Assembly (NCBI RefSeq): GCF_008727875.1
Contig: NZ_VTWS01000001.1
Span: 1,054,001 to 1,118,000, forward strand
Source: Larkinella humicola
GTDB taxonomy: Bacteria > Bacteroidota > Bacteroidia > Cytophagales > Spirosomataceae
DNA: 64,000 nt
Direction: 5' to 3'
This document shows, in pieces, positions 5,106 through 63,434 of this stretch (position 1 is the first letter of the stretch; the number at the start of each line of letters is the position of its first letter). The notes under the pieces were generated by a model. The model was not told where the DNA came from. It searched no databases and saw only the letters and a program-made list of their open reading frames with translations. Position numbers and translations under genes: made by a program.

Positions 5106-5201
5106 CGGTTTACGGTATTCGGTTTACGGTTTACGGTGGCTGACGCAAGCTTCCACGGATGCGTTAGCCACCGTAAACCGTAAACCGAATACCGTAAACC
5201 G
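5106..5201. repeat. Heptad-repeat hairpin (41-bp arms)
   Basis: Left arm 5106-5146 and right arm 5161-5201 are reverse complements over 41 bases with one G/A difference; the loop is 14 bases. The arm reads as 7-bp units CGGTTTA, CGGTATT, CGGTTTA, CGGTTTA and then CGGTGGCTGACGC, the core shared with other sites. It starts 4 bases after the GLPGLI stop and precedes the receptor gene. Confidence 0.9.
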
Positions 5202-5229
5202 AATACCAACCTGAAATTGACCAAGTACC

Positions 5230-8103
5230 ATGCGCTCACTTCTCCCTGTTTTCTTTTTTATGATCAGTCTAACGAAGGTCGTCGCCCAGTCGCAGCTCCG
5301 GGGGGCGGTGGTCGACTCCACCACGCGAAAACCGCTGATGGAAGCGACGGTTTCCCTGCTGTCGGTGCGCGATTCGTCGGTCGTCACCTTCATGATTACC
5401 AACGGAGACGGGGAATTTACCTTCAAAAATGTGGCGGTGGGGACCTACCGGCTGCTGATTACGTATGTGGGGTATCGGAACAAATCAAAGCGCATTTCGA
5501 TCACAACCGGCAAACCGCATACCGACGCTGGAACAATTGAAATGATTACCCAGGCGGTTAACCTCAACGAAGTGGTGGTGAAGCAGGAAGGGCCGCCGAT
5601 TGTCATCAAACAGGATACGGTCGAGTTCAATGCCGGTGCCTTCAAAACGCAGCCCAATGCAATGGTGGAGAACCTGTTGAAGAAACTACCGGGCGTGGAA
5701 GTGGACCGCGAGGGAACCATCAAGGCGCAGGGGCAGGAAGTAAAACGGGTCTTGGTCGACGGAAAACCGTTCTTTGGCGATGATCCGAAAATGGCCACCC
5801 GCAACCTCCCTGCCGACATCATCGACAAAGTCCAGATGTACGATCAGCAGTCCGATCAGTCACAATTTTCGGGTATCGACGACGGTGACCGGAACAAAAC
5901 CATCAATCTCGTTACCAAAAAAGACAAGCGGAAGGGTTATTTCGGCCAGCAATCCATCGGTGCCGGACCGAACGAGACGAACGATGACGTCCGCTACGCG
6001 GCCCGGCTTAACCTGAACCGGTTTAACGGCAACCAGCAGATTTCGCTGATCGGGCAAGCCAATAACATCAACCAACAAGGCTTTACGGGCCAGAATATAT
6101 TCGGCGGGGGCGCCGGACTGGGTGCCAATTTTGGTGGTGGTGGCCTGATTGTGGCGGGTGGCCGGAGTGGCGGAGGAAGCAATGGCGGGAATACCAACGC
6201 CATCACCCGGACGCTGGCGGGTGGTTTAAACTACCGCGACCAGTGGGGTAAGAAAGTAGACGTGGCAGGGAGTTATTTCCTGAACGACCTCAATACCGTA
6301 ACCGATCAGCAAAGCCGCCGACAGTATGCGCTGCCCGACACTTCCTACCAGGTCAACCAGAACAGCACGTCGCGCAATCAGGTCACCAGCCACCGGTTCA
6401 ACATGCGGTTTAATTACCAGATCGATTCGTTGACGACGCTGCGGATTACCCCCGGTTTTACCCTACAGAATTCTGAATACCAGAGCATTAATCAATCACA
6501 AACGCTGACGAACGACGCGATTTCCAGCGTCGAGCAACTGGATTCGACGAACCTGATCAACACCAGCAACACGAATTATAATTCGACCGGAAACGGGATT
6601 TCGGGGAATAACAACGCACTCCTGATGCGGAAGTTCAAACGCAAAGGGCGGACGTTATCCCTGAACTGGAACATTGCCGTCAACAACCAGAATACCGATG
6701 GCATCAACCAATCCCTCAACCAGTTTTTCGGGCAAACCGGCGGCCGGAATAACCAGAACATCGATCAACGAAACGAACAAACCAGCAAGTCGGTGACCAA
6801 CTCGATTAACCTGACGTATACCGAACCGCTTTCGCTCAGCAAAACCCTGGAGTTTCATTACAACTATTCCAATAACCGCAATACCTCCAACCGATCGGTA
6901 AACGACTACGATGAATTGACCAAAGACTACACGGAATTCAACCCATCGCTGAGCAATAACTTTGTAAATACCTACATGACAAATCGGGTCGGTTCTACGC
7001 TGCAAAACAAACGTCTGAAGTATACCTACGCGCTGGGATTTGACATGCAACAGGCTAATCTCCACAGCGATAACCAGACAAGAGACGTCAGTCTGAACAA
7101 AAGCTTTACCAACGTACTACCGAATGCGATGTTTACGTATAACTTCAGTAAAAACAGGACGCTGCGGTTCAATTACCGGAGTCGCACCAACGCCCCTTCC
7201 GTGTCGCAGTTGCAGCCCGTAGCCGACAACACCAATCCGCTCAACATCCGGCTGGGTAATCCGGATCTGAAACAGGAGTTTAGCAATACCGTTTCGCTGA
7301 ATTACAACAATTTTCAGCAAACGACCTTCCGCAGCGTGTTCGCTATGCTGAATGCGACCCAAACCAACAACAAAATCGTGAATGCCACGACGTTTACCAA
7401 CCAGGGAGCGCAAACGACGCAACCCGTAAACACCAACGGTTATTATAACGTGATGGCATTCCTGGCCATCGGTCGGCGCATTCAACCCCTCAAAGCCAAT
7501 GTGAACCTGACGAGTAACATCAACTTCAACCGGGGCGTCAGTCTGGTCAATAGCCAGACCAACCGGTCGCAAAACTGGACGTTCAGCCAGGGTGCCCGCA
7601 TCAACTCGAATTTCGATGAAAAACTTGAATTTGGACTGAGCGGCAACATTAGTTACCAGACTGCTTTATACTCTCTGCAAACGAATCAGAATACCGAGTA
7701 TTTCAACAAATCGCTCAGTGGCGATCTGTATTACCAATTGCCTTTCCGGCTGGTTGTTACGACGGATGTTACGTACAATAATTACTCGGGAAAATCGGCT
7801 GGATCGGTTCAGAATTTTGCGCTCTGGAACGTGGCCTTAACCCGTCAATTTTTCAAAAACCGCCAGGGAGAATTAAAATTGCAGGTCTATGATTTGCTGA
7901 ATCAAAACCGCAGCATCAGCCGGAATGTGACAGAAACGTATTCCGAAGAAACGAATAGTCGCGTTCTGAACCGGTATTTTATGCTCAGCTTTACCTATAA
8001 CCTGCGGAGATTTGGCAGCGGCCCTCAGTCCCGAACCGAACGGCAAAACCGGGATCAGAACTTCCCGCAACGGGGGATGCAACGGCCGGGGCGAATGAAT
8101 TAA
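5230..8103 (+). CDS. TonB-dependent receptor-like outer membrane beta-barrel protein
   Basis: 957 residues with a signal peptide (about 1-19, ending VVAQ), an N-terminal carboxypeptidase-regulatory-like domain (about 22-105: LRGAVVDSTTRKPL, GEFTFKNVAVGTYRL, YVGY), a plug-like region (LLKKLPGVEVDREG, VLVDGKPFFGDDPKMATRNL, INLVTKKD) and a long Asn/Gln/Thr-rich barrel region. It belongs to the outer membrane beta-barrel group of TonB-like proteins commonly found next to GLPGLI genes. It probably moves a ligand across the outer membrane using TonB energy; the substrate cannot be read from sequence. A Gly-rich stretch (GGGAGLGANFGGGG) lies near residue 300. Probably co-transcribed with the GLPGLI gene. 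Confidence 0.9.
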   Translation: MRSLLPVFFFMISLTKVVAQSQLRGAVVDSTTRKPLMEATVSLLSVRDSSVVTFMITNGDGEFTFKNVAVGTYRLLITYVGYRNKSKRISITTGKPHTDAGTIEMITQAVNLNEVVVKQEGPPIVIKQDTVEFNAGAFKTQPNAMVENLLKKLPGVEVDREGTIKAQGQEVKRVLVDGKPFFGDDPKMATRNLPADIIDKVQMYDQQSDQSQFSGIDDGDRNKTINLVTKKDKRKGYFGQQSIGAGPNETNDDVRYAARLNLNRFNGNQQISLIGQANNINQQGFTGQNIFGGGAGLGANFGGGGLIVAGGRSGGGSNGGNTNAITRTLAGGLNYRDQWGKKVDVAGSYFLNDLNTVTDQQSRRQYALPDTSYQVNQNSTSRNQVTSHRFNMRFNYQIDSLTTLRITPGFTLQNSEYQSINQSQTLTNDAISSVEQLDSTNLINTSNTNYNSTGNGISGNNNALLMRKFKRKGRTLSLNWNIAVNNQNTDGINQSLNQFFGQTGGRNNQNIDQRNEQTSKSVTNSINLTYTEPLSLSKTLEFHYNYSNNRNTSNRSVNDYDELTKDYTEFNPSLSNNFVNTYMTNRVGSTLQNKRLKYTYALGFDMQQANLHSDNQTRDVSLNKSFTNVLPNAMFTYNFSKNRTLRFNYRSRTNAPSVSQLQPVADNTNPLNIRLGNPDLKQEFSNTVSLNYNNFQQTTFRSVFAMLNATQTNNKIVNATTFTNQGAQTTQPVNTNGYYNVMAFLAIGRRIQPLKANVNLTSNINFNRGVSLVNSQTNRSQNWTFSQGARINSNFDEKLEFGLSGNISYQTALYSLQTNQNTEYFNKSLSGDLYYQLPFRLVVTTDVTYNNYSGKSAGSVQNFALWNVALTRQFFKNRQGELKLQVYDLLNQNRSISRNVTETYSEETNSRVLNRYFMLSFTYNLRRFGSGPQSRTERQNRDQNFPQRGMQRPGRMN

Positions 8104-8112
8104 TTTGGATTT

Positions 8113-8225
8113 CGCATTCCCCGGATTGTGTATTACCGACATCCCGCATTCCCCGGATGATGTTACCAACATCCCGCATTCCCCGGATTGCATCCGGGGC
8201 TATGGTATTTCAGCCTTTCAGGCTG
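8113..8225. repeat. Triple direct repeat with two short hairpins
   Basis: CGCATTCCCCGGAT occurs at 8113, 8145 and 8175 (spacings 32 and 30). The last copy runs into CCCCGGAT-TGC-ATCCGGGG (8181-8199), followed by CAGCCT-TTC-AGGCTG (8211-8225). It lies in the 259-base gap between the TonB-like gene and the cytochrome-domain gene. It resembles REP-like intergenic repeats; no associated transposase is seen. Confidence 0.7.
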
Positions 8226-8362
8226 GTTAGGGGTGTTCATTCGTTTGGTTGAGAAGGAAGTAAAAATGTTCCGCTCCTGGCTTTGTAGTAAAACAGATTG
8301 ATCGGTTAATTCAACCCGCCAAAAAACCGGGTGATGGTAATTCGTGTGGTAGTCTCTTTCGT

Positions 8363-11300
8363 ATGAAAACAATTCACTTCTTCCTGTTTGTTGCGGCACT
8401 GGGTCTGGTGGGCTGTCAATCCGCTCAACTGCCTGAAGAGGTGGCGCTGGCAATGGAAAAAACGCCCGAAACGGTGGACTACAACCTACACGTCAAACCC
8501 ATCATTTCGGACCGGTGTTTCAAATGCCACGGCCCCGATAAGGCCAAAATCGAAGCGGATTTGCAGTTGGCAAACTTCGAAGGTGCTACGCAGGAAAACA
8601 AGGAAGGACGCCGGGCGATTGTGCCGGGCGACGCCGGAAAAAGTGAGCTGGTGAAGCGGATTCTGAGCCACGACCCGGAAGAAGTGATGCCCACGCCCAA
8701 GTCGAACCTGACACTGACGGCGGAAGAAAAAGCCGTGTTGATCAAATGGATCGAACAGGGCGCGGAATACAAGGAACACTGGTCGCTGACGAAAATCGAA
8801 AAACCGGCGGTTCCGAAGGTGGGGCAAAGTTTTCTGTCGCGCTGGGGCGTCACTTCCGACGAAGAAACCACCTGGGTTCGCAATGAAATCGATCGGTTTA
8901 CACTGGCGAAAATGAAGGAGGTGGGCTTAAAACCGTCGCCCCAAGCCGAAAAAGCAACCCTGCTCCGACGCGTATACATGGATTTGACGGGCCTTCCGCC
9001 CACGCCCGCCGAGGTTGAAGCATTCCAAAAAAATGCCGCCCCCAATGCCTATGAACAGGTGGTGGACAAGCTGCTGGCATCTCCGCAATACGGTGAACAA
9101 CAAGCCGTTAGCTGGCTAGACCTGGCCCGGTTTGCCGACTCGCAGGGCTATCAGGACGACCCCATGCGGAACGCGTATCCCTACCGCGACTGGGTCATCC
9201 GATCGTTCAATCAAAACCGCCCCTTCGACCAGTTTGTGAAGGAACAGATAGCCGGGGATCTACTGCCTGCTTCGCCAAAACCGGAAGTCCAGCGGGAACG
9301 CATCCTGGCCACAGCTTTCAACCGGCTGCATTCGCAAAGTGGCGAAAACGGCATTGTTCCCGAAGAATACCGCATCGAATACGTGGCCGACCGCGCCAAT
9401 ACCTTCGGAAAAGCCTTTCTGGGCCTGACGATGGAGTGTGCCCGCTGCCACGACCACAAATACGATCCGATCAGCCAGAAAGACTATTATTCGCTGTTCG
9501 CATTTTTCAACCAAAACAAGGAAACCGGGCAAATCACGCACAACGGCGAAGCCTGCCCGACGGTGATGCTGCCGTCTCCGCAGGTCGATCAAACGCTGAA
9601 GTTCATCCGGACCAAAATTCAGCGGCTGGAAACCCGCCTGCAACCGCAACTTTACAAAAAATCGTTTACCAACTGGGCTACAAATCCAGTGCTTACTTCC
9701 ACGCTCAACCGCGGCTTGCTGGTACATTTGCCGCTGGATGCCGAGGAGAATGGCATCTACGAAAACCGGGCCGATCGGTCTTTCGTCGCGTTTCTGAGTG
9801 GTGATAAGGAGCGAAAACCGCTGCCAACCGCTGGGAAAGTCGGTCAGGCGATGGCGTTGCGGGGTGAATGCGGCATCGGCATTCTGTCGGAGACAATCGA
9901 CCGCGTGAACGGAAAAATGGTGGAGTCGCCGAAACGGTTTGGCAAGGGACTCAACTTTGAACGGAATCAGGAATTTTCGGTCAGCATCTGGGTCAATCCG
10001 GCCCAAAAAGGCGTTGAAGGAGCCATTTTTCGCCGAACCAACTACGCCAATGAGGGCTACCGGGGCTATTCGGTCAGGATGAATCCGGATCAGACCCTGA
10101 CGGTTTTGCTGAGTTACGTCTGGCCGGCCAATTGCATCGAACTCAAAACCGTTGATAAACTACCACTCCATCGCTGGCAAAACCTGACGCTGACCTACGA
10201 CGGCGAAGCGAAAGCCGCCGGTGTGCGTTTTTTCGTGGACGGCAAACCCGCCCGCATGAACGTGATTACCGACAACCTGACCAAAGGCCTTCTGCACGGA
10301 GAATTCAACTCCAACAAGCAAGGCAAATTTTACGGTTTTGAACTCGGCTACGACTCCCAGGAAAAGACCCTCCACGGGGTTGCCGTCGACGAACTCCGGA
10401 TTTATAAACGACGGCTATCGGCGCTGGAAGTTGAATCACTGGCGGCTGGCACCAATTCCGTGGCCGATCTGGTACGCATCCCTGAAAGCAAACGAACCGC
10501 TCAGCAACGGCAGAATTTGCTCGAACATTATTTGCTCACGGCCGATTCCACCTTCGCTCAGACGAACCGGCAACTCTCGGTCGTTCGCGGGCAGGAAGTA
10601 GCGGTTTTGTCCGACATCCCCGAAGTTATGGTGATGCAGGAATTGCCCGCCAGTCAGCAACGGAAAAGTTTTATTCTGAACCGGGGCGTTTACGATGCGC
10701 CCGGTGCAGCAGTGTCTTCCCAAACGCCACTTCGCCTGGGGAAACTACCCGCCGACTATCCGCAAAACCGCCTGGGCCTGGCGCAATGGCTGCTGGCAGA
10801 CGATCATCCGTTGTTCGCCCGTGTGATGGTCAACCGGCTCTGGCAGAACTACTTCGGCAACGGTCTTGTCAAAACGCAGGAAGACTTCGGCAGCCAGGGC
10901 GATTTGCCGTCGCACCCCGAATTGCTGGACTGGCTGGCCATTCAGTTCCGGGAGGAAGGCTGGGACACGAAGCTGTTTGTCAAACGGATGATGCTATCGG
11001 CCACTTACCAGCAATCGTCCAAAGCCACGCCGGAAGAAATTGAACGCGATCCCGATAACAAGTGGCTGGCCCGGGGCAGCAGTTACCGGCTTTCTGCCGA
11101 ACAGGTCCGCGACAATGCACTGGCGGCCAGCGGTTTGCTGGTTCGAAAAATTGGCGGACCGAGTGTCTATCCGTACCAGCCAGCCGGTATCTGGGAAGCC
11201 CTGGCGACCCGCAATACGATTAGTTACCGCCAGCAACACGGCGACAGTTTATACCGGCGCAGCATGTATACCATCTGGAAGCGGACCAGTCCTCCGCCGA

Positions 11301-11707
11301 TGATGCTGAATTTTGACTCGCCCGACCGGAGTCTGTGTACGGTTCGGCGGCAAAAAACCGCTACGCCATTGCAGGCCCTGGTAACGCTGAATGATCCGCA
11401 ATTCGTGGAAGCCGCCCGGGTGCTGGCCCAGCGAACGATGCGGGCCAAACCGTCGTCGGACGAGCGAATCCGGTATTTCTTTCAAGCCATTGTTTCCCGA
11501 AACCCGCGTCCCCGGGAGTTGGAACTGATGAAAGCCTTGTACGTTGAAGCCTATCAGGGCTTTGCGAACGCACCACAACGGGCTGAATCACTGTTGAAAA
11601 CCGGTGAATACGAACGTGACCCGACGCTGAAAGGCCCGGAACTGGCGGCTTACACGATGGTTGCCAACACCATTTTGAATTACGACGAAGCGACGATCAA
11701 ACGATAA
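8363..11707 (+). CDS. Planctomycete-type cytochrome c / DUF1549 / LamG / DUF1553 lipoprotein
   Basis: 1114 residues. A lipoprotein signal with lipobox LVGC (Cys18) is followed by a planctomycete-type cytochrome c domain with a heme motif CFKCH (Cys52, Cys55, His56) and a later MPTP segment. A DUF1549 domain comes next (about 150-360: DLTGLPPTPAEVEAF, SWLDLARFADSQGYQ, GLTMECARCHDHKYDP), then a concanavalin/LamG-like insert (about 450-690) and a C-terminal DUF1553 domain (about 800-1090: VNRLWQNYFGNGLV, ATYQQSS). Such multi-domain proteins occur with DUF1501 proteins in Planctomycetes, Verrucomicrobia and some Bacteroidota and are thought to work in polysaccharide or other organic degradation; the reaction is unknown. 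The partner gene starts 5 bases later. Confidence 0.93.
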   Translation: MKTIHFFLFVAALGLVGCQSAQLPEEVALAMEKTPETVDYNLHVKPIISDRCFKCHGPDKAKIEADLQLANFEGATQENKEGRRAIVPGDAGKSELVKRILSHDPEEVMPTPKSNLTLTAEEKAVLIKWIEQGAEYKEHWSLTKIEKPAVPKVGQSFLSRWGVTSDEETTWVRNEIDRFTLAKMKEVGLKPSPQAEKATLLRRVYMDLTGLPPTPAEVEAFQKNAAPNAYEQVVDKLLASPQYGEQQAVSWLDLARFADSQGYQDDPMRNAYPYRDWVIRSFNQNRPFDQFVKEQIAGDLLPASPKPEVQRERILATAFNRLHSQSGENGIVPEEYRIEYVADRANTFGKAFLGLTMECARCHDHKYDPISQKDYYSLFAFFNQNKETGQITHNGEACPTVMLPSPQVDQTLKFIRTKIQRLETRLQPQLYKKSFTNWATNPVLTSTLNRGLLVHLPLDAEENGIYENRADRSFVAFLSGDKERKPLPTAGKVGQAMALRGECGIGILSETIDRVNGKMVESPKRFGKGLNFERNQEFSVSIWVNPAQKGVEGAIFRRTNYANEGYRGYSVRMNPDQTLTVLLSYVWPANCIELKTVDKLPLHRWQNLTLTYDGEAKAAGVRFFVDGKPARMNVITDNLTKGLLHGEFNSNKQGKFYGFELGYDSQEKTLHGVAVDELRIYKRRLSALEVESLAAGTNSVADLVRIPESKRTAQQRQNLLEHYLLTADSTFAQTNRQLSVVRGQEVAVLSDIPEVMVMQELPASQQRKSFILNRGVYDAPGAAVSSQTPLRLGKLPADYPQNRLGLAQWLLADDHPLFARVMVNRLWQNYFGNGLVKTQEDFGSQGDLPSHPELLDWLAIQFREEGWDTKLFVKRMMLSATYQQSSKATPEEIERDPDNKWLARGSSYRLSAEQVRDNALAASGLLVRKIGGPSVYPYQPAGIWEALATRNTISYRQQHGDSLYRRSMYTIWKRTSPPPMMLNFDSPDRSLCTVRRQKTATPLQALVTLNDPQFVEAARVLAQRTMRAKPSSDERIRYFFQAIVSRNPRPRELELMKALYVEAYQGFANAPQRAESLLKTGEYERDPTLKGPELAAYTMVANTILNYDEATIKR

Positions 11708-11712
11708 GTGCC

Positions 11713-20888: not shown

Positions 20889-20964
20889 CCCCTAAATCCC
20901 CTAAAGGGGACTTGGACACGGCATAATCCGTTTGCTAAAAAGTCCCCTATAGGGAATTTAGGGG
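20889..20964. repeat. Inverted repeat of the CCCCTAAATCCCC family (copy 1)
   Basis: Arms 20889-20912 and 20941-20964 pair over 24 bases with two mismatches; each arm is internally palindromic (CCCCTAAAGGGG). The spacer starts TTGGACACGG and resembles the spacer of the copy at 63452-63544. Similar motifs are, from memory, common between genes in Bacteroidota. Confidence 0.85.
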
Positions 20965-37380: not shown

Positions 37381-37440
37381 GTGGTAGCTCCGGAGGAACG
37401 GCCTGAAGATATCTTCAGGCCGTTCCTCCGGAGCTACTAC
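37381..37440. repeat. 60-bp near-perfect palindrome without loop
   Basis: The two 30-base halves (37381-37410 and 37411-37440) are reverse complements with one mismatch and no spacer. The half contains TAGCTCCGGAGGAACGGCC. It lies in the 209-base gap between convergent genes (ends at 37320 and 37530), a place where a bidirectional terminator is expected; there is no T tract. Confidence 0.9.
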
Positions 37441-39953: not shown

Positions 39954-40000
39954 CCAAATCCCGGTACAAATTGCAGTTTCCTACGTTTCTTTGCAAGAAC

Positions 40001-40070
40001 AGAGGGCATGGGATACCGGGCAAAGGGCAATGAACAATCGACATCCTTTACCCCGTACCCCATGCCCTCT
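40001..40070. repeat. Heptad-repeat hairpin in front of hslU
   Basis: Arms 40001-40026 and 40045-40070 pair over 26 bases with three mismatches. The sequence reads in 7-bp units GAGGGCA, TGGGATA, CCGGGCA, AAGGGCA, ATGAACA, ATCGACA. It begins 47 bases after the porQ stop and ends 22 bases before the hslU ATG, so it probably lies in the hslU leader. Confidence 0.8.
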
Positions 40071-40092
40071 GCATCATGCAACTACCTTACGA

Positions 40093-47060: not shown

Positions 47061-47142
47061 GGTAAGCGTTGTACGGTAAGAATGCGGGGTTTACGGACAA
47101 TTACGTCAGCTAACTCATCACTCTTACCGCATAACTCTTACC
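47061..47142. repeat. Heptad-repeat hairpin (imperfect)
   Basis: Arms 47061-47084 and 47119-47142 pair over 24 bases with four mismatches. On the minus strand the right arm reads GGTAAGA, GTTATGC, GGTAAGA, GTGATGA and then GTTAGCTGACGT, a close variant of the shared core. It follows the ATP-grasp stop by 13 bases; the right arm end forms part of a TACCTTTG element. Confidence 0.75.
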
Positions 47143-51264: not shown

Positions 51265-51328
51265 GAGGGTTGACGATTGACGGTTGACCATGGACGATTC
51301 CATGGTCAACCGTCAATCGTCAACCCTC
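51265..51328. repeat. Heptad-repeat hairpin (29-bp perfect arms)
   Basis: Arms 51265-51293 and 51300-51328 are exact reverse complements with a 6-base loop (ACGATT). Arm units are GGTTGAC, GATTGAC, GGTTGAC, CATGGAC. It starts 10 bases after the type B gene stop and ends 19 bases before the next ATG. Confidence 0.92.
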
Positions 51329-52336: not shown

Positions 52337-52353
52337 CGTAAAGAGTGATGAGC

Positions 52354-52416
52354 TAAGAGTTAAGAGTTAAGAGTTGGCTGACGCATTAACTCTTAACTCT
52401 TAACTCTTAACTCTTA
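52354..52416. repeat. Heptad-repeat hairpin overlapping the lysA stop
   Basis: Left arm 52354-52375 (three AGAGTTA-type units) pairs exactly over 22 bases with 52388-52409; the right side has a further unit to 52416. The left arm runs into GTTGGCTGACGC, the shared core, at 52373-52384. The right end includes the TAA of lysA (52414-52416). Block 52363-52384 is identical to the reverse complement of 62347-62368. Confidence 0.92.
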
Positions 52417-55742: not shown

Positions 55743-55765
55743 TCGCTCCCTATCTGAAAAAAGAG

Positions 55766-55847
55766 TTATAAATAATAAATGGTAAATGTAAAAGTGGCGG
55801 TTTTGCAAAAACTTTTATATTTACCATTTATCATTTACTATTTATAA
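55766..55847. repeat. Heptad-repeat hairpin with arms differing by one heptad
   Basis: Left arm 55766-55795 (30 bases) matches the reverse complement of 55811-55847 (37 bases) except for one G/A change and one extra 7-bp unit (GTAAATG) in the right arm. It begins 24 bases after the anti-sigma stop. Confidence 0.9.
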
Positions 55848-55865
55848 TTCTATTTTCAACCAGGG

Positions 55866-56105: not shown

Positions 56106-56660
56106 ATGAAAGCCTTCATCAAAACAGGGATTATTGCCGCTATTCTTTGCGCATTCGTCACGGTTTCTTACGCTCAAAAGCCGAAAGAAGTCGGTGGCGC
56201 CATGATGTATCCCAACAAGAACATCATTGAAAATGCCGTCAACTCGAAAGACCACACCACCCTGGTTGCCGCCGTGAAAGCTGCGGGCCTGGTCGAAACG
56301 TTACAGGGAGCCGGTCCTTTCACGGTTTTTGCTCCCACCAACGATGCTTTTGGCAAATTACCAGCCGGCACCGTTGAAACGCTGGTGAAACCCGAAAACA
56401 AAGCCACCCTGACCGGCATTTTGACCTACCACGTGGTTGCAGGTCGTCTGGACGCCAAGGAAATTGGAAAGCTCATTAAGGCCGGTAACGGAACCGCTAC
56501 CTTGAAAACCGTGGCCGGTGGCAACCTGACCGCCAAAATGAGTGGAAAAAATCTGGTTCTGACTGATGCCAAAGGGGGAACCGCCACCGTTGCGATTTCG
56601 GATGTATACCAGTCGAACGGCGTGATTCACTCCATCGATACGGTTTTGATGCCAATGTAA
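56106..56660 (+). CDS. Secreted single-domain fasciclin (FAS1) protein
   Basis: 184 residues from MKAFIKTGIIAAI with a signal peptide ending SYAQ; a longer frame to 56040 lacks support. One FAS1 domain (about 45-184) has the motifs DHTTLVAAVKAAGL, FTVFAPTNDAFGKLPAGTVE, ILTYHVVAGRLD and the closing NGVIHSIDTVLMP. It is a small secreted adhesion-type protein. It follows the SigK-like/RskA pair, which suggests it is the target gene, but a terminator lies between them, so it must have its own promoter. Confidence 0.93.
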   Translation: MKAFIKTGIIAAILCAFVTVSYAQKPKEVGGAMMYPNKNIIENAVNSKDHTTLVAAVKAAGLVETLQGAGPFTVFAPTNDAFGKLPAGTVETLVKPENKATLTGILTYHVVAGRLDAKEIGKLIKAGNGTATLKTVAGGNLTAKMSGKNLVLTDAKGGTATVAISDVYQSNGVIHSIDTVLMPM

Positions 56661-56682
56661 CTGAAGGCAACTAAAAGACTAG

Positions 56683-56718
56683 AAAAAGCCACACGCACAA
56701 CTGCGCTGTGGCTTTTTT
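56683..56718 (+). terminator. Rho-independent terminator of the fasciclin gene
   Basis: AAAAAGCCACA pairs with TGTGGCTTTTT, with an inner CGC/GCG pair, and ends in six T. It lies 23 bases past the stop. Confidence 0.85.
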
Positions 56719-56758
56719 AACTCGTAAACTATCCTCCCATTTCTTGCGTTAATCAGGT

Positions 56759-57247
56759 ATGAACCGCAACCTTTTTCTTGGAGTTTTGTGTGGGCTGGTG
56801 CTCACGGGCTCCGTCGCATCCATTTCGTTAACGCCACGCATCGACGATGCCACACCCCGCAAAGTGGTTAAAACGGAAGCGGAGTGGAAGAAAATCCTGA
56901 CACCCCAGCAATTTTACGTCCTGCGTCAGCAAGGGACCGAGCGGCCTTTTACGAGTCCGCTGGTCGATAACCATGAAAAAGGCGTATTCAAATGTGCGGG
57001 CTGCAAAACGCCCCTGTTCAGCTCCGATACCAAGTTTGAATCGGGAACGGGCTGGCCGAGTTTTTATAAATCATTGTCGAAAGAGAACGTGGTTGAAAAG
57101 GTGGATCGCACCCACGGCATGGTCCGTACGGAAGTCGAATGTGGCGTCTGTGGCGGGCATTTGGGACACGTTTTTGAGGATGGACCCAAGCCAACCGGTC
57201 TGCGGTATTGCATGAACGGCGTAGCATTGGAATTTGAAAAGAAATAA
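56759..57247 (+). CDS. msrB: Exported peptide-methionine (R)-S-oxide reductase
   Basis: 162 residues with an N-terminal hydrophobic export signal ([17 protein letters not shown]). The MsrB domain follows (about 38-160): zinc-site pairs C79/C82 (CAGC) and C128/C131 (CGVC), substrate-site GTGWPSFYK and catalytic C151 in RYCMNGVAL. It reduces the R form of methionine sulfoxide in proteins, here probably in the periplasm. It is a single gene, with a terminator 24 bases downstream. Confidence 0.96.
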
Positions 57248-57270
57248 GCGGGTGCTAACCCCTTGGTTTT

Positions 57271-57302
57271 GAGCCAACCCGACGAACGGGCTGGCTTTTT
57301 TC
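57271..57302 (+). terminator. Rho-independent terminator of msrB
   Basis: AGCCAACCCG pairs with CGGGCTGGCT around a 5-base loop and runs into six T. Confidence 0.85.
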
Positions 57303-57326
57303 ATATTATATCGTCTAAATTTCCGT

Positions 57327-57334
57327 TATATTTG
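57327..57334 (+). promoter_or_regulatory. Predicted -7 element of the PBP gene
   Basis: TATATTTG is a full match to TAnnTTTG. The expected TTTG upstream is replaced by a T run at 57295-57302. It would start transcription near 57341, giving a leader of about 140 bases. Confidence 0.4.
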
Positions 57335-57341
57335 CTTTAAG

Positions 57342-57367
57342 AGACGGATTTCTCAATCCGTCTTTTT
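57342..57367 (+). terminator. Terminator-like hairpin at the start of the PBP leader
   Basis: AGACGGATT (57342-57350) pairs with AATCCGTCT (57355-57363) around TCTC and is followed by T5. It lies immediately after the predicted promoter, so it could be a 5'-end hairpin or an attenuator. A second hairpin, CGCACC...GGTGCG, lies near 57413-57433. Confidence 0.5.
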
Positions 57368-57480
57368 GCCTATCGAATTAATTTTACTTTTTTGAAACCA
57401 AACGGACATCAGGCGCACCCCTTCGGCGGTGCGACAGCAAACGGCTCCGTTCTTCAATTTTAACCGTCAAAATACCAGGC

Positions 57481-60054
57481 ATGAGTAAATTCTGGGGGCA
57501 GCTTCGTACCCTTTGGCAAGGCATCACCGGCTTTTTCGGTCTCATAAGCAACGGCTTTAGACGACTGGTTTACCGCATGATGTCTGGTCTACTTGGAAAA
57601 GAGCGTGTCGATTCAGCAACCGGTCATTACCGGGGCCTTCGACAACGCTACCGAAACTGGATCAACGCCCGCTTCGACACCCGATCACTCGCTTTCCGCA
57701 TCTTTTACCAAACCACCAAAACGCTTATTTTCAGCTTTTTGCTGGTTCTGTTGTACATCCTATCAATAGAAACCAATTTCCTTTACCTCAGCGGTGAAAT
57801 GCCGAGTGTCGAGGATTTAAAAAATCCCAAGGTTTCCCAGTCTTCCGAAATTTACTCCTACGATAAAGTCATGATCGGCCGGTTTTTTACTGAAAACCGG
57901 ACACCCATCAAATACGAAGACTTATCGCCCTCCCTCATTCACGCCCTGATTGCCACTGAAGACGTACGGTTTTATGAGCATTCAGGCATCGACACCCGAA
58001 GCCTGGGCCGGGCTGTCTATGGCGTGTTAACCGGTAACAACTCCGGCGGGGGGAGTACGATAACCCAACAGCTTGCCAAAAACCTGTTTAAAACCCGACG
58101 GCGGCAGTCGCGGGGATTGCTGTATAATGTTCCGCTGGTGAAAACGGTTATTCTGAAAACCAAGGAATGGCTGATGGCCATCAAACTGGAGCGGAATTTT
58201 TCGAAGGAACAGATCCTGACCATGTATTTCAATACCGTCGATTTCGGCAGCAATGCCTACGGGATCAAAACGGCGGCCCGGACGTACTTCAGCAAATCAC
58301 CGGAGACGTTAAACGTGCAGGAATCCGCCGTTCTCGTGGGCTTGCAGAAAGCGACGACGACGTATAATCCGCTGATCAAACGAAACTTCGAGAAGTCGCG
58401 CAACCGCCGGAATGTGGTGATCCGGCAAATGGAAAAATACAAGTACCTCACCAAAGCACAAGCCGATTCACTGTGTGAATTACCCCTCGTAACGCGCTAC
58501 AGCCCCGACAATCCGTATTCGGGACCGGCCAATTATTTTAAAAATGCAGTAGTCGAGGTCGTTAAAAAGTGGGGTGAAGAAAACGGCTATGATCTGTATA
58601 CCGATGGTTTGCGCATTTATACCACCGTTGACTCCCGGATGCAGGCCCTGGCCGAAGAAGCCGTTGCGGAAAAAATGAAGCTGCTGCAACGAACGTTCGA
58701 CAACCACTGGTCGGGTCGAAACCCCTGGACGGATGAAGATGGTAAGGAAATTCCGGACTTTCTGGACAAAGTCGCCCAGCGGACGGAGCGGTATAAGGCC
58801 CTCCAACTGAAATTTCCGAATCAGCCGGATTCCATTCAGTATTACATGAAGGAGAAAAAAGACAGCATGACGGTCTTCTCTTGGAACGGACCGAAGAAGA
58901 AGTACATGTCGCCCATGGATTCCATCGCCTACTACAAGCGGTTTTTGCAGGCCGGTCTGGTGGCGATGGACCCGCATACCGGTTTTATCCGGACGTGGGT
59001 GGGTGGCCTCGACTACAATTTTTTCCAGTTCGATCACGTCAAACAGGGCAAACGCCAGCCTGGCTCGACCTTCAAACCGTTTGTTTATGCCACGGTGATC
59101 GACGATTCAACGATCAATTTAGGCCCCTGCGACCGTCGTCGCGATGAACCGTTCCGGAAGGAATACATCAACGAAAAAGGCGAAGAAGATTTCTGGGCAC
59201 CAAAAAACTCAGCCGGATCATTCTCCTACTCCAATATGACCCTGCGACGGGCCATGGCCCGCTCCATCAACTCGGTGACAGCCCAGTTGACCAATGACGT
59301 TGCAACGCCCCAGCGGGTGGTGGAATACGCCCACCGGCTCGGTATTAAAAGCCAATTGGCGGCTGTTCCTTCGGTGGGTCTGGGTTCTTCGGACGTGTCG
59401 CTGTATGAAATGGTAGCGGCTTATTGCACCTTTGCAAACAACGGCGTACACACTGAACCGTTGCTGGTGACGCGAATTGAAGACCGCAATGGCAAAGTCA
59501 TTGAAGAATTTGTACCCGAGAAGAAACAGGCTATTCGCGAAGAGTCGGCTTTTCTGATGCTCCACATGCTGAAAGGTGGTTTGGAAGAATCGGGCGGCAC
59601 GTCGCAAAATTTGTGGTCGTACGATTTGTTCAAAAACCGGAACCAGGTGGGGGGAAAAACCGGCACCACCTCCAACAACTCCGATGGCTGGTTCATGGGG
59701 GTCACCCGTGATCTGGTAGTGGGGGCCTGGGTGGGTGGCGATGATCGCAGCATCCACTTCCGGTCGACAGACATGGGTGAAGGCGCCAAAACCGCCTTGC
59801 CGCTGGTGGGACGTTTTTTGGAGAAAGTATATCAGGACAAGGCGCTGAAGCTTTATCAGGGTCCTTTTGATAAACCGACGGTTAAAATAACGAAGGATTA
59901 TCTGAATTGCCCCGGTGGAAACGATGATGACGAAGAGGATGAATCGGACTCTACGGATGTTGACATTCCTGCCGATTCGCTGTTCATTGAACCCTCGGCT
60001 CCAGAGCAGGTCGATCCGCCCGATACAACCCAACGCGCCCAGCCTTTCCGCTAA
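57481..60054 (+). CDS. Class A penicillin-binding protein (PBP1A-like)
   Basis: 857 residues. A cytoplasmic N-terminus, one TM helix (about 80-100, TLIFSFLLVLLYILSI), a GT51 transglycosylase domain (ALIATEDVRFYEHSGIDTRS, GGGSTITQQLAKNLF) and a transpeptidase domain (active-site GSTFKPF, then SRSINS-like ARSINSVTAQL, KTG in GGKTGTTSNNSDGWFMG). The C-terminal tail is acidic, Asp/Glu/Ser-rich (NDDDEEDESDSTDVDIPAD) and of low complexity. It polymerises and cross-links peptidoglycan at the inner membrane. The N-terminal extension before the TM (about 80 residues, basic) is longer than in many homologues. Confidence 0.95.
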   Translation: MSKFWGQLRTLWQGITGFFGLISNGFRRLVYRMMSGLLGKERVDSATGHYRGLRQRYRNWINARFDTRSLAFRIFYQTTKTLIFSFLLVLLYILSIETNFLYLSGEMPSVEDLKNPKVSQSSEIYSYDKVMIGRFFTENRTPIKYEDLSPSLIHALIATEDVRFYEHSGIDTRSLGRAVYGVLTGNNSGGGSTITQQLAKNLFKTRRRQSRGLLYNVPLVKTVILKTKEWLMAIKLERNFSKEQILTMYFNTVDFGSNAYGIKTAARTYFSKSPETLNVQESAVLVGLQKATTTYNPLIKRNFEKSRNRRNVVIRQMEKYKYLTKAQADSLCELPLVTRYSPDNPYSGPANYFKNAVVEVVKKWGEENGYDLYTDGLRIYTTVDSRMQALAEEAVAEKMKLLQRTFDNHWSGRNPWTDEDGKEIPDFLDKVAQRTERYKALQLKFPNQPDSIQYYMKEKKDSMTVFSWNGPKKKYMSPMDSIAYYKRFLQAGLVAMDPHTGFIRTWVGGLDYNFFQFDHVKQGKRQPGSTFKPFVYATVIDDSTINLGPCDRRRDEPFRKEYINEKGEEDFWAPKNSAGSFSYSNMTLRRAMARSINSVTAQLTNDVATPQRVVEYAHRLGIKSQLAAVPSVGLGSSDVSLYEMVAAYCTFANNGVHTEPLLVTRIEDRNGKVIEEFVPEKKQAIREESAFLMLHMLKGGLEESGGTSQNLWSYDLFKNRNQVGGKTGTTSNNSDGWFMGVTRDLVVGAWVGGDDRSIHFRSTDMGEGAKTALPLVGRFLEKVYQDKALKLYQGPFDKPTVKITKDYLNCPGGNDDDEEDESDSTDVDIPADSLFIEPSAPEQVDPPDTTQRAQPFR

Positions 60055-60060
60055 GATTTC

Positions 60061-60090
60061 AGGTCAACTCCTTCCGGGTTGACCTTTTTT
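60061..60090 (+). terminator. Rho-independent terminator of the PBP gene
   Basis: AGGTCAAC pairs with GTTGACCT and runs into T6. Confidence 0.85.
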
Positions 60091-60157
60091 GTTGGCCCAA
60101 TCTAAAAACAACCCCGGCGAAGCGGTGGTTATAGAGAGATACCATCAACTCAGGACT

Positions 60158-60433
60158 ATGACACCATCACAAAATCCGAACCTACATCCGGTCAGGAATG
60201 ACATGCCCCTGGAGGATGTTCCGTCAGAAATGGACACTGATCCACGGGCCGATGAAGAAGTAATCGATCAAACCGGGCCCACGCCCAGTGAAGAAGAAAC
60301 GGATTTACAACCCAGCCCGAACCCAACCGGGCGCATTCCGTCGGGCATGGACGACGATCCGTCCAACGATGAAAATCTAAACGAAAAAATCGCCTACGCC
60401 CTGGCGGGCGCGGAACCGAATAGAAAAGAATGA
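60158..60433 (+). CDS. Small acidic hypothetical protein
   Basis: 91 residues from MTPSQNPNLHPVRN, very rich in Asp, Glu and Pro, with the repeated pattern MPLEDVPSEMDTDPRADEE and IPSGMDDDPSNDEN. Likely disordered. I do not recognise it. It has its own stretch between two terminator-like structures and normal codon use. The stop is at the foot of a heptad hairpin. Confidence 0.55.
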   Translation: MTPSQNPNLHPVRNDMPLEDVPSEMDTDPRADEEVIDQTGPTPSEEETDLQPSPNPTGRIPSGMDDDPSNDENLNEKIAYALAGAEPNRKE

Positions 60434-60437
60434 TGAG

Positions 60438-60487
60438 TGATGAATGATGAACGATGAATGGATTAATTCATCGTTCATCATTCATCA
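60438..60487. repeat. Heptad-repeat hairpin between convergent genes
   Basis: Arms 60438-60459 and 60466-60487 are exact reverse complements over 22 bases with a 6-base loop. Units are GATGAAT, GATGAAC, GATGAAT; one more imperfect unit lies upstream. The small acidic gene stops at 60433 and the ABC transporter gene at 60494. Confidence 0.92.
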
Positions 60488-60493
60488 TTTAAA

Positions 60494-62254
60494 CTAAACC
60501 ATCTCCTTATACTGCATCCGGTACAGGTTCGCGTAGGTGCCTTCCTGCTGCAACAATTCTTCGTGGGTTCCCTGTTCTACGATGTTGCCTTTGTCGACAA
60601 CAATAATTTTGTTGGCTTCACGGATGGTCGAGAGCCGGTGGGCAATCACGATGGCCGTGCGCCCTTTCATTAGTTTTCCAATGGCATCCTGAATCAGCCC
60701 TTCCGTTTCGGTATCGACCGACGACGTAGCCTCGTCTAACACCATGATGCGGGGATCGTGAACCATCGCGCGAACGAAGGAAATCAACTGTCGCTGACCC
60801 ACCGAAAGCGTCGAACCGCGCTCCATCACGTTGTACTCATAACCGCCCGGCAATCGCTCGATGAACTCATGCACGCCCACCAGTTTGGCCGCTTCAACAA
60901 TGCGCTCCCGGCTGATGGATTTATTGCCGAGGGTAATGTTGTTTTCAATGGTATCCGAAAACAGAAAGACATCCTGCAAAACAACGCCAATGCTCTGGCG
61001 CAACGCTTCCAGTCTATACTCGTGTACCTCGACACCGTCGATTTTGATCTCCCCCTGATTGATGTCGTAAAACCGGCTTAATAAATTGATAATGGACGAC
61101 TTCCCGGCTCCCGTGGCACCGACAAACGCAACGGTTTCGCCTTCTTTCACAGTAAAGTTGATGTCTTTCAGGACGTAGTTATCGTCGTTGTAGGCAAACC
61201 AGACGTTTTTAAACTCCACCTCACCCCGCCAGGTTGCGGGCGCATACGTACCGGTGTTGGGTGTAAAATCATCGCTATCCAGCAGTTTCAAAATCCGGTC
61301 GGTGCTTACAATTCCCATTTGCAGGGTATTGAACCGGTCGGCGAGCATCCGGATGGGGCGGAAAAACAGGTTGATGAACATGATGAAAGCCGTCACCGTT
61401 CCGTAGGTAACTTCCTGGTTCAGAATCGCTTTGGCACCATACCAGACCACAAGACCCGTGGCGGCTGCCGACAGAATATCGGCTACCGGATAATAAACGG
61501 AATAGTACCAGATCGACCGGATGTTGGCTTTCCGGTGTTCGTCGTTGATCTGCCGGAACTTCTCCTCTTCGATCTTTTCGCTGCCAAAAATCTGCACGAT
61601 GTTCATGCCCGTGATGTGTTCCTGCACAAACGAACTGAGGTTGGCTACGGCGGTCCGCACTTCATTGAACGATACTTTGATTTTTTCCTTGAAGACGTAC
61701 GTACTCAATAACATCAGCGGAATCATCGACAAACTGATGGCCGAAAGCCGCCAGTCGGTATAAAACATGACGGCGATGATCAGCACCAGTTGCAGAATGT
61801 CGCCCACAATGGCGGCCATGCCTTCGCTGAAGACGTCGGAGAGCGTTTCAACATCCGAAATGGTGCGCGTCACGAGTCGGCCGATGGGCGTGTTGTCGAA
61901 AAATTTCAGACGGAGTTTCAGGACTTTCTGGTAGAGCTGAACCCGGATATCCCGAATCACGTTTTGCCCCAGCCAGCCGGAGAGATAGGTATTGAAAAAC
62001 TGAATAATGCCTTGCAAAACCAGAATTACGATCATCAAAATCAGCATTTTGGTCAGGCCCGGATAATCGCCGGTGGCAATTTTGGAGTCGATGGTGTAGC
62101 GAATCAGCAACGGACCAACGGGAGCCAGCACCGCACTCAACAGAATAATCAGAATAAGCCCGTAAAATTGGAGCTGGTACGGTTTTACGAAGGCATAAAG
62201 CCGTCGCAGGGTAATCCAGTCAAAAATCTGACCACTCTTGGTTTCGGTATTCAC
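60494..62254 (-). CDS. MsbA-like ABC transporter (fused permease and ATPase)
   Basis: 586 residues. Six TM helices occupy about 20-320 (FYGLILIILLSAVLAPVGPL, VLQGIIQFFNTYLSGWLGQN) and the ATPase domain about 340-586: Walker A GATGAGKSS, signature LSVGQRQLI, Walker B IMVLDEATSSVD and the switch His in VIAHRLSTI. It is a half-transporter that works as a homodimer and exports lipids, drugs or similar hydrophobic cargo; the substrate is unknown. The EamA transporter gene lies upstream in the same direction, with a heptad hairpin between. Confidence 0.93.
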   Translation of the reverse strand: MNTETKSGQIFDWITLRRLYAFVKPYQLQFYGLILIILLSAVLAPVGPLLIRYTIDSKIATGDYPGLTKMLILMIVILVLQGIIQFFNTYLSGWLGQNVIRDIRVQLYQKVLKLRLKFFDNTPIGRLVTRTISDVETLSDVFSEGMAAIVGDILQLVLIIAVMFYTDWRLSAISLSMIPLMLLSTYVFKEKIKVSFNEVRTAVANLSSFVQEHITGMNIVQIFGSEKIEEEKFRQINDEHRKANIRSIWYYSVYYPVADILSAAATGLVVWYGAKAILNQEVTYGTVTAFIMFINLFFRPIRMLADRFNTLQMGIVSTDRILKLLDSDDFTPNTGTYAPATWRGEVEFKNVWFAYNDDNYVLKDINFTVKEGETVAFVGATGAGKSSIINLLSRFYDINQGEIKIDGVEVHEYRLEALRQSIGVVLQDVFLFSDTIENNITLGNKSISRERIVEAAKLVGVHEFIERLPGGYEYNVMERGSTLSVGQRQLISFVRAMVHDPRIMVLDEATSSVDTETEGLIQDAIGKLMKGRTAIVIAHRLSTIREANKIIVVDKGNIVEQGTHEELLQQEGTYANLYRMQYKEMV

Positions 62255-62317
62255 AAAGAAAACAGTTGGAAGGTTTTTCGGAGTAACAGAAATATTGGGT
62301 GAAGAGTTTGCAGTGCA

Positions 62318-62388
62318 GAGTGAAGAATTAAGAGTGAAGACAGTTCGCGTCAGCCAACTCTTAACTCTTCACTCTTAATTCTTCACTC
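62318..62388. repeat. Heptad-repeat hairpin overlapping the EamA coding end
   Basis: Arms 62318-62340 and 62366-62388 are exact reverse complements over 23 bases. The loop (62341-62365) contains GCGTCAGCCAAC, the core in reverse. The right arm includes the last three codons and the stop of the EamA gene (62375-62388). A fourth and fifth heptad extend the right side into the core. Confidence 0.93.
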
Positions 62389-63292
62389 CTATCGCCAGTT
62401 GAGCCAGTTCCTGCCAGGAAATTAAACCGATGGCGAGAATGGCGAGTGCCAGCCCGATTCGGTTGACCAACAGCAGCTTTTCTTTGAAAAAGAGCAGAGC
62501 CGACAAAGCCGCCACCAGAATGACACCAATGTTGTAGAGCGGATAGACGAAGGCTCCGTTGCCGCCAAATTCAGAAAGCGCCAGCAGCAGGGTGTAAAAA
62601 CTCAGGAAATTCGGAATGCCCAGGGTGATGGCTCCCACCAGCGTCTGGCGTTCAATCTTCTCTTTACCCTGAATCAACCGGCTTGCCAGCATCACCAGAC
62701 CAGCAGCTATGGCCCCCAGTACCATCGTCAACGTTACCTGCAACGTTTGATCAGTCGATGGAATATACCGGATGTTCATGTAGTTGATCATCGTGTTGGT
62801 GGCTCCATACATTACAAAAACCGCCAGCGGCAGGAGCTTATTCCAGCCCAGGGCTTTCACGGTTTGGCCTTCCTGCTTCTTGTACGTACTCAATCCGACG
62901 GCCACCACGGCCAGAATCAAACCCATATAATTCAGCGCATCGAAGGTTTTTCCGCCGGTTTGAAAGACGAACAGACTGAAACAGACCGGAATCACCAGCG
63001 ACATGTTATTGGCCAGCGACGTGGCTGTAATGCCCATACGCTGCGTCGACAGACCCGACAGGATGAACGTAATGATGAACCCAACGCCCAGCCCCAGAGC
63101 GAGCCACGTCCAGGTTTGGGAGAAATCAATGGCGAAAGGCTGGTCGCGGGGCAGCAGCAGAAAACCGGTCAGGAAACACACCGGGTAGTTGAAGACGATT
63201 GCCTGAACGGTATTGACCCTGTAACGGGGAAACATCCGGAAATTAAGCAGCAGAACAACCGAAAGCAAAATGCTCAGGAACAGAAAAAGCAT
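62375..63292 (-). CDS. EamA/DMT-superfamily transporter
   Basis: 305 residues from MLFLFLSILLSVV; the longer frame to 63412 runs through a hairpin and is not coding. About ten TM helices form two EamA-like halves (FLTGFLLLPRDQPFAIDFSQ, LALGLGVGFIITFILSGLST, YMGLILAVVAVGLSTYKKQE, then PNFLSFYTLLLALSEFGGNG, LALAILAIGLISWQELAQL). DMT transporters export metabolites; the substrate is unknown. Its C-terminal residues (GVKN) are encoded inside a hairpin arm. Confidence 0.88.
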   Translation of the reverse strand: MLFLFLSILLSVVLLLNFRMFPRYRVNTVQAIVFNYPVCFLTGFLLLPRDQPFAIDFSQTWTWLALGLGVGFIITFILSGLSTQRMGITATSLANNMSLVIPVCFSLFVFQTGGKTFDALNYMGLILAVVAVGLSTYKKQEGQTVKALGWNKLLPLAVFVMYGATNTMINYMNIRYIPSTDQTLQVTLTMVLGAIAAGLVMLASRLIQGKEKIERQTLVGAITLGIPNFLSFYTLLLALSEFGGNGAFVYPLYNIGVILVAALSALLFFKEKLLLVNRIGLALAILAIGLISWQELAQLAIGVKN

Positions 63293-63339
63293 GGCAAAGA
63301 CAGAAGGAGGAATTTTCTTTTGCCGGAAAGGTAGTAATA

Positions 63340-63434
63340 AATGTAAATGAAGAATGGTAAATGGTAAATGTAAAAGTTTTCGCCTGCAGCGACTCACTTT
63401 TACATTTAGCATTTTCCATTCTTCATTTTACATT
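63340..63434. repeat. Heptad-repeat hairpin upstream of the EamA gene
   Basis: Arms 63340-63377 and 63396-63434 pair over about 38 bases with two mismatches and one indel. Units are GTAAATG, AAGAATG, GTAAATG, GTAAATG, TAAAAGT. The inner arm shares AATGGTAAATGTAAAAGT with the hairpin at 55766. Confidence 0.9.

What the first reader, a model, noticed from the sequence alone, without database searches (positions are those of the whole stretch)
5106..63434. Family of intergenic hairpins built from 7-bp repeats whose sequence changes from site to site
Seen directly: inverted repeats at 5106, 40001, 47061, 51265, 52354, 55766, 60438, 62318 and 63340 have arms made of tandem 7-bp units (for example CGGTTTA; GGTTGAC/GATTGAC; AGAGTTA; GATGAAT/GATGAAC; GTAAATG). 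Arms are 22-41 bp and often perfect. Within a site the heptads are nearly the same; between sites they differ, except for two related pairs. All lie next to gene ends or starts. A constant period and architecture with variable sequence is not what a copied transposon-like repeat looks like. Heptanucleotide tandem repeats are known from cyanobacteria (STRR), but not, as far as I know, as paired arms in this group. Inference: either local templated synthesis and arm correction, or a repeat-binding protein that reads 7-bp steps.
Basis: partly seen in the sequence, partly recalled or inferred. Interest (0 to 1): 0.82.

Follow-up and report, generated by a model that had tools for sequence, protein, structure and literature searches.

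The report
Seven-base-unit hairpins after bacterial genes
A bacterium of the genus Larkinella carries many long DNA hairpins just behind its genes, their arms built from loosely repeated seven-base units that differ from place to place, and comparison with sister species suggests that DNA copying rewrites the two arms together.

Summary
Confirmed and extended. The window is Larkinella (Spirosomaceae). Long inverted repeats with period-7 arms are common: 64 of 149 scored repeats, 1.4 expected. They sit behind stop codons (median 8 bp) and avoid divergent gaps (0 of 101). Units have four constant and three variable bases. 28 of 61 share a GCTGACG-like tip over several heptads, so part of the set is a dispersed family. 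Between congeners with about 93% identical flanks, paired bases change together (39 seen, 6.3 expected; no G.U excess), loops are inverted at 8 sites, and at some sites the heptad type is exchanged while a hairpin stays. Arm homogenisation plus spacer inversion is the published signature of template switching. Coupled change also occurs in non-heptad repeats, so it does not explain seven. No reverse transcriptase was found and no REP transposase beside the hairpins. Paired heptads near gene 3' ends are published for Xanthomonas, so this is a new variant of a known kind: several heptads in one genome, a recurrent tip, exchange at fixed sites. A 3'-end function is plausible but unproven.

The parts
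5106..5201 (.). Heptad hairpin, unit CGGT+TTA/ATT, arms 42 bp, loop 12; tip GGCTGACGCA at 5138-5147 pairs with TGCGTTAGCC
   Evidence: absent in G002 and G006, a CGGTATT-type hairpin present in G005
40000..40071 (.). Weaker period-7/14 hairpin (GGGCATG-like), arms 27 bp
   Evidence: identical in G002, near-identical in G006
47061..47142 (.). Imperfect hairpin GGTAAG.../...CTTACC with partial period-14 right arm
   Evidence: below the score cut
51265..51328 (.). Heptad hairpin, unit GATTGAC/GGTTGAC, perfect 30-bp arms, loop 4
   Evidence: GACAAGA-type units in G002 at the same gap, GATTGAC/GACGATA-type in G006
52350..52413 (.). Heptad hairpin, unit GAGTTAA, arms 26 bp, loop GGCTGACGCATT (tip 52376-52385)
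   Evidence: in G002 the same T>G change in three successive units on both arms; GATGAAT-type in G005 and G003
55755..55858 (.). Heptad hairpin of the AATGNNN type with tip TGTAAAAGT
   Evidence: same type in G002 and, by eye, in G006
60438..60487 (.). Heptad hairpin, unit GATGAAT/GATGAAC, perfect 22-bp arms
   Evidence: paired A>G change in G002; other heptads in G005 and G003
62318..62388 (.). Heptad hairpin, unit GAGTGAA/GAATTAA, perfect 23-bp arms, loop holds GCGTCAGCC (62347-62355)
   Evidence: a 10-bp-unit hairpin (CGGATTGA type) stands there in G006 and G005
63345..63428 (.). Heptad hairpin of the AATGNNN type, tip AATGTAAAAGT...ACTTTTACATT
   Evidence: one of 35 exact tip pairs in the genome

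Best explanation
These are gene-end (3') hairpins of a lineage-specific, partly dispersed family. Selection or insertion preference keeps a hairpin behind stop codons (inferred from position and persistence). The arm sequence is rewritten locally at DNA level: the polymerase switches between the arms, so that one arm templates the other (arm homogenisation, paired changes) and sometimes the loop is inverted; slipped copying between units in steps of seven spreads a change from unit to unit and changes the number of units. Shown: location, coupled arm changes, loop inversion, one change standing in three successive units at one site, exchange of heptad type at fixed sites. Inferred: template switching rather than RecA recombination between arms, slippage in 7-base steps, and a role of the RNA hairpin in termination or 3'-end protection.
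For: Position: 0 of 101 in divergent gaps, median 8 bp after the stop for 79 tandem cases. Arms: in the 24 of 45 heptad gaps of G000 and G002 whose hairpins are at least 70% alike (740 base pairs), 39 pairs changed on both sides and stayed Watson-Crick, 6.3 expected if independent; all pairs changed on both sides 42, permutation mean 8.3, maximum 18 in 5000. G000-G006 and G002-G006 agree (7 against 0.95; 5 against 0.30). 19 of the 39 are transversions, which no single G.U step makes. Single-sided mismatches show no wobble excess (G.U 19, A.C 28, other 22 between species, summed; 43, 52 and 47 within 79 tandem hairpins). Loops: 9 of 63 same-type ortholog pairs (8 sites) are inverted, 37 direct, 17 unclear; shuffled loops give 115 of 3150, that is 2.3 of 63; six of the nine match at 0.83 or more inverted, one over all 28 letters of the compared window. 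Heptad hairpins persist better than other long inverted repeats (5 of 45 against 14 of 39 absent between G000 and G002, p 0.009). Ends in convergent gaps with a heptad hairpin rarely hold a canonical terminator (1 of 60 against 19 of 138 without a long repeat, p 0.009). Precedent: template switching homogenises arms and inverts spacers (PMC8604942, passages).
Against: No T-tract excess behind the hairpins (11 against 9 A-tract control of 79), and in tandem gaps canonical terminators are as common with a heptad hairpin (7 of 61) as without a long repeat (73 of 559), so they are not plain intrinsic terminators. The convergent-gap result counts both ends of a gap and was one of several tests. No G.U tolerance is visible, which is odd if RNA pairing is selected. 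Coupled changes occur also in non-heptad repeats (7, 9 and 5 against 1.6, 1.1 and 1.2 expected), and so does one loop inversion (1 of 20 pairs), so neither explains the number seven. Only pairs that are recognisable hairpins in both species were scored, which favours paired arms somewhat. Whole exchange of heptad type is not explained by arm copying alone. No transcript data.
Confidence: 0.6

Rival explanations
1. Mobile hairpins: a REP/MITE-like family inserts behind genes; site-to-site differences are old subfamilies, and exchange of heptad type is replacement by new insertions.
For: Shared tip or loop in 28 of 61 hairpins, and loops more alike between sites than shuffled ones (local score 11 or more: 19 against 2 of 1653 pairs); exact tip pairs 38 and 35 copies; patchy over species: 6 of 9 Larkinella genomes, 16 of 121 Spirosomaceae genomes; exchanges and gaps without a hairpin.
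Against: No transposase nearby: by eye 0 of 23 Y1 loci (5 of the 7 in G000 among them) have a heptad hairpin within 900 bp, while 18 of 23 have a palindrome of another kind. No clear target duplication at the 5106 empty site (by eye). Within a site paired bases of both arms change together, which insertion alone does not give.
Confidence: 0.3
2. Plain RNA structure selection: compensatory point mutations keep a terminator-like hairpin; the heptads are slippage by-products.
For: Position behind stop codons, strong folding, a hairpin still present when the sequence type has changed.
Against: No G.U excess over A.C, half of the paired changes are transversions, inverted loops.
Confidence: 0.2
3. 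A protein reads the 4-base tag in 7-base steps, and its binding selects the period.
For: Conserved columns are contiguous: contrast 0.98 against 0.79 permuted, 53 of 67 hairpins above their permuted mean.
Against: The tag differs between sites (AATG, GAAT, GAGT, CGGT, TGAC), hard for one protein. No search for a binder was made.
Confidence: 0.1
4. Templated repeat synthesis by a reverse transcriptase or telomerase-like enzyme.
For: Tandem units with a fixed step and variable sequence.
Against: No RVT_1 match at E 0.001 in G000, G002, G003 and G005, although heptad hairpins were found in all four.
Confidence: 0.03

Closest known systems
Xanthomonas GGGAATC / (GGGANTN)n heptad repeats (PMC4692102, section 10 read)
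   Same: 7-bp units with positions 1-4 (and 6) conserved; convergent inverted pairs (70 and 75 cases); close to the upstream ORF (average 28 nt); few between divergent ORFs (8% and 7%); [quoted passage not shown]
   Different: That study follows one G-rich, quadruplex-forming heptad; here several A/T/G heptads in one genome and a recurrent tip. Arm rewriting is shown here; I saw no such analysis in the parts read
Template switching between inverted-repeat arms (PMC8604942, passages; PMC8794818, abstract and start of introduction)
   Same: Arm homogenisation, multi-base changes; spacer inversion in PMC8604942
   Different: Coding DNA of yeast and RNA genes there; here intergenic bacterial hairpins with heptad arms
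TAACTGA heptad repeats (PMC4679880, passages); cyanobacterial STRR heptanucleotides (recalled)
   Same: Intergenic tandem heptads, patchy by lineage; TAACTGA also in five Bacteroidetes
   Different: Direct repeats with one indirect repeat in the Beggiatoaceae genome, one heptad, mostly just upstream of starts there
REP / RAYT elements (PMC3733652, passages)
   Same: Palindromic, intergenic, dispersed; the tip contains CGTC
   Different: CGTC lies at the hairpin tip, not the foot; arms vary; no RAYT linkage found
Nostoc SDR elements within heptameric repeats (Elhai et al. 2008, recalled; look-up failed)
   Same: A constant core embedded in heptads (recalled)
   Different: Not compared

Membership tests
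Xanthomonas-type paired heptads | 7-bp units with four neighbouring conserved positions (there 1-4, and 6) | tested here: met
   53 of 67 hairpins with arms of 28 bp or more; conservation 0.87-0.92 in four columns, 0.63-0.68 in three (window chosen per hairpin)
Xanthomonas-type paired heptads | Inverted pairing of arrays near gene 3' ends | tested here: met
   of 22 heptad runs outside called repeats 14 also have an inverted partner, 37 of 440 for shuffled units
Xanthomonas-type paired heptads | G-rich GGGA tag able to form quadruplexes | tested here: not met
   commonest tags AATG, GAAT, AAAT, GAGT, CGGT have no G-tract; no quadruplex search was run
REP/RAYT | Cognate Y1 transposase flanked by the repeat | tested here: not met
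   0 of 23 loci by eye
REP/RAYT | GTAG or CGTC tag at the foot of a 20-40 bp palindrome | tested here: not met
   CGTC sits at tip or loop; by eye the foot varies (list)
Intrinsic terminator | Hairpin followed by a U-tract | tested here: not met
   11 of 79 against 9 of 79 A-tract control
Intrinsic terminator | Ends transcripts | not testable with these tools
   no RNA data
Template-switching inverted repeats | Arm homogenisation | tested here: met
Template-switching inverted repeats | Spacer inversion | tested here: met
   9 of 63 pairs, 8 sites
Template-switching inverted repeats | Made by polymerase switching rather than RecA recombination | not testable with these tools
   needs mutants
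Reverse-transcriptase-made repeats | RT gene in the genome | tested here: not met
   0 RVT_1 matches in G000 and G002

The most novel reading that the evidence does not exclude
The heptads are written by an active local process with an inherent seven-base step: replication repeatedly re-primes on a four-base tag three bases away inside a hairpin, so that a fixed gene-end site regenerates a fresh, paired hairpin of new sequence, with the GGCTGACGC tip as the constant seed. The same step would underlie the excess of heptad repeats in Xanthomonas and cyanobacteria.
Probability: 0.12. Interest if true: 0.85.

Novelty: new variant of a known kind. Interest (0 to 1): 0.56.

Why it matters
Long paired hairpins whose sequence changes fast are usually read as RNA selection. 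Here loop inversions, transversion pairs and lack of wobble bias point to DNA copying between arms as the maker, with many natural replicates per genome and sister species at about 93% identity. That would make template-switch rates, and the puzzle of why bacterial repeats favour seven bases, measurable. It also warns that covariation in such hairpins is weak evidence for an RNA function.

Tried and rejected
Whole-genome scan of the 7.86-Mb genome: not possible; replaced by sampled stretches.

RAYT/REP link: 7 Y1 matches in G000, but by eye 0 of 23 inspected loci carry a heptad hairpin within 900 bp. Y1 counts and tip counts tend to be higher in the same Larkinella species; not followed further.

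Reverse transcriptase and loss of the hairpin nuclease SbcD as permissive cause (SbcD over its cut-off in all 9 Larkinella genomes): rejected. Rfam at gathering thresholds: no family at the hairpins.

DNA-uptake-sequence reading of the tip (recalled from Neisseria terminators): GGCTGACGC 24 times in 464 kb of G000, 4-8 in three Markov copies; only 5 against 3-4 in G005 and 5 against 1-3 in G003; too few; dropped.

My first ortholog classes called some same-type hairpins 'different' because the finder picked another repeat; one search showed this, so the arm and loop counts leave out some same-type pairs. re-scored by fitting the whole hairpin (heptad gaps, G000-G002: 35 same, 4 swap, 1 swap?, 5 absent of 45; G000-G006: 17, 3, 0, 1 of 21; G002-G006: 13, 3, 0, 2 of 18). 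Its cut is lenient (0.68, null 0.56): it scores some exchanges as same (229866; 182318 and 185654 for G006) and two gaps with a degenerate hairpin of other heptads as absent (171265; 108215 of G002). By eye the 45 gaps are 35 same, 6 exchanges, 4 without a heptad hairpin.

Literature: one search found no paper with its terms; the listings showed no title or abstract start on such repeats in Larkinella or Spirosoma (two general stem-loop surveys listed were not opened).
Full report
What and where. The window is G000:C11:1054001-1118000 of a 7.86-Mb genome. Its congeners match Larkinella sp. C7, L. punicea, L. knui and L. terrae (G002, G006, G005, G003) by equal contig length. The nine sites are real inverted repeats; seven have clear 7-bp arms, one is weaker and one imperfect. 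As RNA they fold with z-scores from -6.0 to -14.4.

Period seven is no chance. Over 464 kb of G000 and 200 kb of each of four congeners, 64 of 149 scored inverted repeats have best period 7, 1.4 expected from base-shuffled arms; periods 10, 8 and 9 have 7, 6 and 4. Autocorrelation at 7, 14 and 21 appears in repeat arms and not on average in other intergenic DNA, although that DNA too holds 19 period-7 and 14 period-10 runs (1 and 2 when shuffled). A second count of such period-7 runs gave 22, of which 14 have an inverted partner nearby, 37 of 440 for shuffled units; eight stand alone.

Anatomy. Units are not exact copies: four neighbouring positions are constant and three vary (53 of 67 hairpins above their permuted mean, p 2e-6; the 67 include orthologs). 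Common tags are AATG, GAAT, AAAT, GAGT and CGGT. The 5' arm is poor in C (8.5%) against G (25.5%). The tip is more constant than the arms: 28 of 61 hairpins of G000 carry GCTGACG, GCTAACG or GCTGGCG at tip or in the loop, with CGGTTTA-, GAGTTAA-, GATGAAT- or GTTTAAA-type arms; 18 of 39 in the contiguous stretch against 44 of 3900 shuffles. The exact pair TGGCTGACGC N4-30 GCGTCAGCCA occurs 38 times in G000, in 6 of 9 Larkinella genomes and 16 of 121 Spirosomaceae genomes, and in 3 of 395 genomes sampled over the phylum, all three of this family and one of them G000. A second tip, AATGTAAAAGT N6-30 ACTTTTACATT, occurs 35 times in G000 and in 5 of 9 Larkinella genomes. Reversed-pattern controls were 0 in all three searches. 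In loci of about 20 kb from named genomes, period-7 repeats were seen in five of seven Larkinella (not L. knui, L. soli) and in Fibrella rubiginis, not in F. aquatilis, Spirosoma panaciterrae or nine Emticicia-type loci, and once, weakly, in 61 loci of other Cytophagales and Bacteroidetes (1.12 Mb).

Location. With my own simple gene caller, 101 heptad hairpins of five genomes fall 70 in tandem, 31 in convergent and 0 in divergent gaps; divergent gaps are 26% of the DNA in gaps of 60 bp or more. In an earlier overlapping sample (105 hairpins: 79 tandem, 22 convergent, 1 divergent, 1 in a gene, 2 at sequence edges) the median distance to the upstream stop is 8 bp. Inverted repeats behind stop codons are general in bacteria (PMC13155455, passages). 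No T-tract excess follows. Ends in convergent gaps with such a hairpin rarely hold a canonical terminator (1 of 60 against 19 of 138; other long repeats 0 of 46); tandem gaps show no such lack (7 of 61 against 73 of 559; other long repeats 14 of 61).

Evolution. Flanks of G000, G002 and G006 are about 93% identical. (a) Arms change together: 39 Watson-Crick double changes in 740 pairs of 24 hairpins, 6.3 expected; 13 of 24 hairpins have at least one; 20 transitions and 19 transversions. The 24 are those of 45 gaps whose hairpins are at least 70% alike. At window 52350 the same T>G stands in three successive units of both arms in G002. Single-sided mismatches do not favour G.U over A.C. Non-heptad repeats show the coupling too. 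(b) Loops invert: of 63 same-type pairs (43 heptad, 20 other, three species pairs) 37 direct, 9 inverted (8 heptad, 1 other; 8 sites), 17 unclear; with shuffled loops 115 of 3150 are called inverted. None of these sites lies inside the window. (c) Types are exchanged: of 45 heptad gaps of G000 and G002, 35 keep the type, 5 hold a different hairpin and 5 none by automatic score; by eye six are exchanges, such as CGGTTTA to ATGGTTA and GATGAAT to GAGTTAG, both with the tip kept, or GATTGAC to GACAAGA. In G006 and G005 the site at window 62318 holds a 10-bp-unit hairpin. (d) Heptad hairpins are lost less than other long repeats (5 of 45 against 14 of 39).

Interpretation. Coupled arm change and spacer inversion are what template switching between arms produces (PMC8604942, passages); PMC8794818 proposes it as a maker and keeper of RNA hairpins (abstract and start of introduction). 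Recombination between arms would look the same. Repeated copying over a tandem array could let arms slip by one unit, which fits the spreading of one change through units (inference from one clear site). The lack of wobble bias speaks against RNA selection as the sole keeper of pairing. The position behind stop codons speaks for a role at mRNA 3' ends or for an insertion preference; neither is shown. The number seven stays open; PMC4679880 reports an earlier proposal that seven bases may be the stretch in contact with the polymerase (passage).

Comparison. The closest relative in print that I found is the Xanthomonas GGGAATC system: units conserved at positions 1-4 and 6, convergent inverted pairs, near the upstream ORF, rare between divergent ORFs (PMC4692102, section 10 read). 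What differs here is several heptads in one genome, the recurrent tip, and the evidence for arm rewriting. REP/RAYT membership fails, as does RT involvement. Searches showed no report of these repeats in Larkinella or Spirosoma, in an open-access library only.

Limits. Sampled, not whole genome; simple gene caller; ortholog pairs among three species are not independent (one G000 site counts in two inverted pairs); only hairpins recognisable in both species entered the arm and loop counts; by-eye readings are marked; no strain-level or RNA data.

Noticed in passing
window 8181-8225 (+): Rfam RF01687 Acido-Lenti-1 match, 37.2 bits against a gathering score of 37, just behind the gene at 5260-8103.
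   Followed up: no
window 2520-2616: Hairpin with 10-bp units (GCGGAGTTGA), a sister class with another period; a CACAGAGT-type hairpin stands there in G002 and G005.
   Followed up: partly
window 20889-20964 and 63452-63544: CCCCTAAAT...AAAGGGG hairpins, another dispersed class; 63452 is absent in G002, and a related copy outside the window has its loop inverted in G006.
   Followed up: partly
window 37384-37437: Palindrome with no loop, GTAGCTCCGGAGGAACGGCCTGAAGAT; relatives with 18-nt loops in L028.
   Followed up: no
L169, L170, L172-L192: 18 of 23 inspected Y1/RAYT loci have a non-heptad palindrome within 900 bp (e.g. GTCGCGTAGCGAC, TTGACAGGAAATCCC...), candidates for REP families.
   Followed up: partly
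G001, G004, G007: Three of nine Larkinella genomes lack both exact tip pairs, so these dispersed families are recent or were lost there.
   Followed up: no
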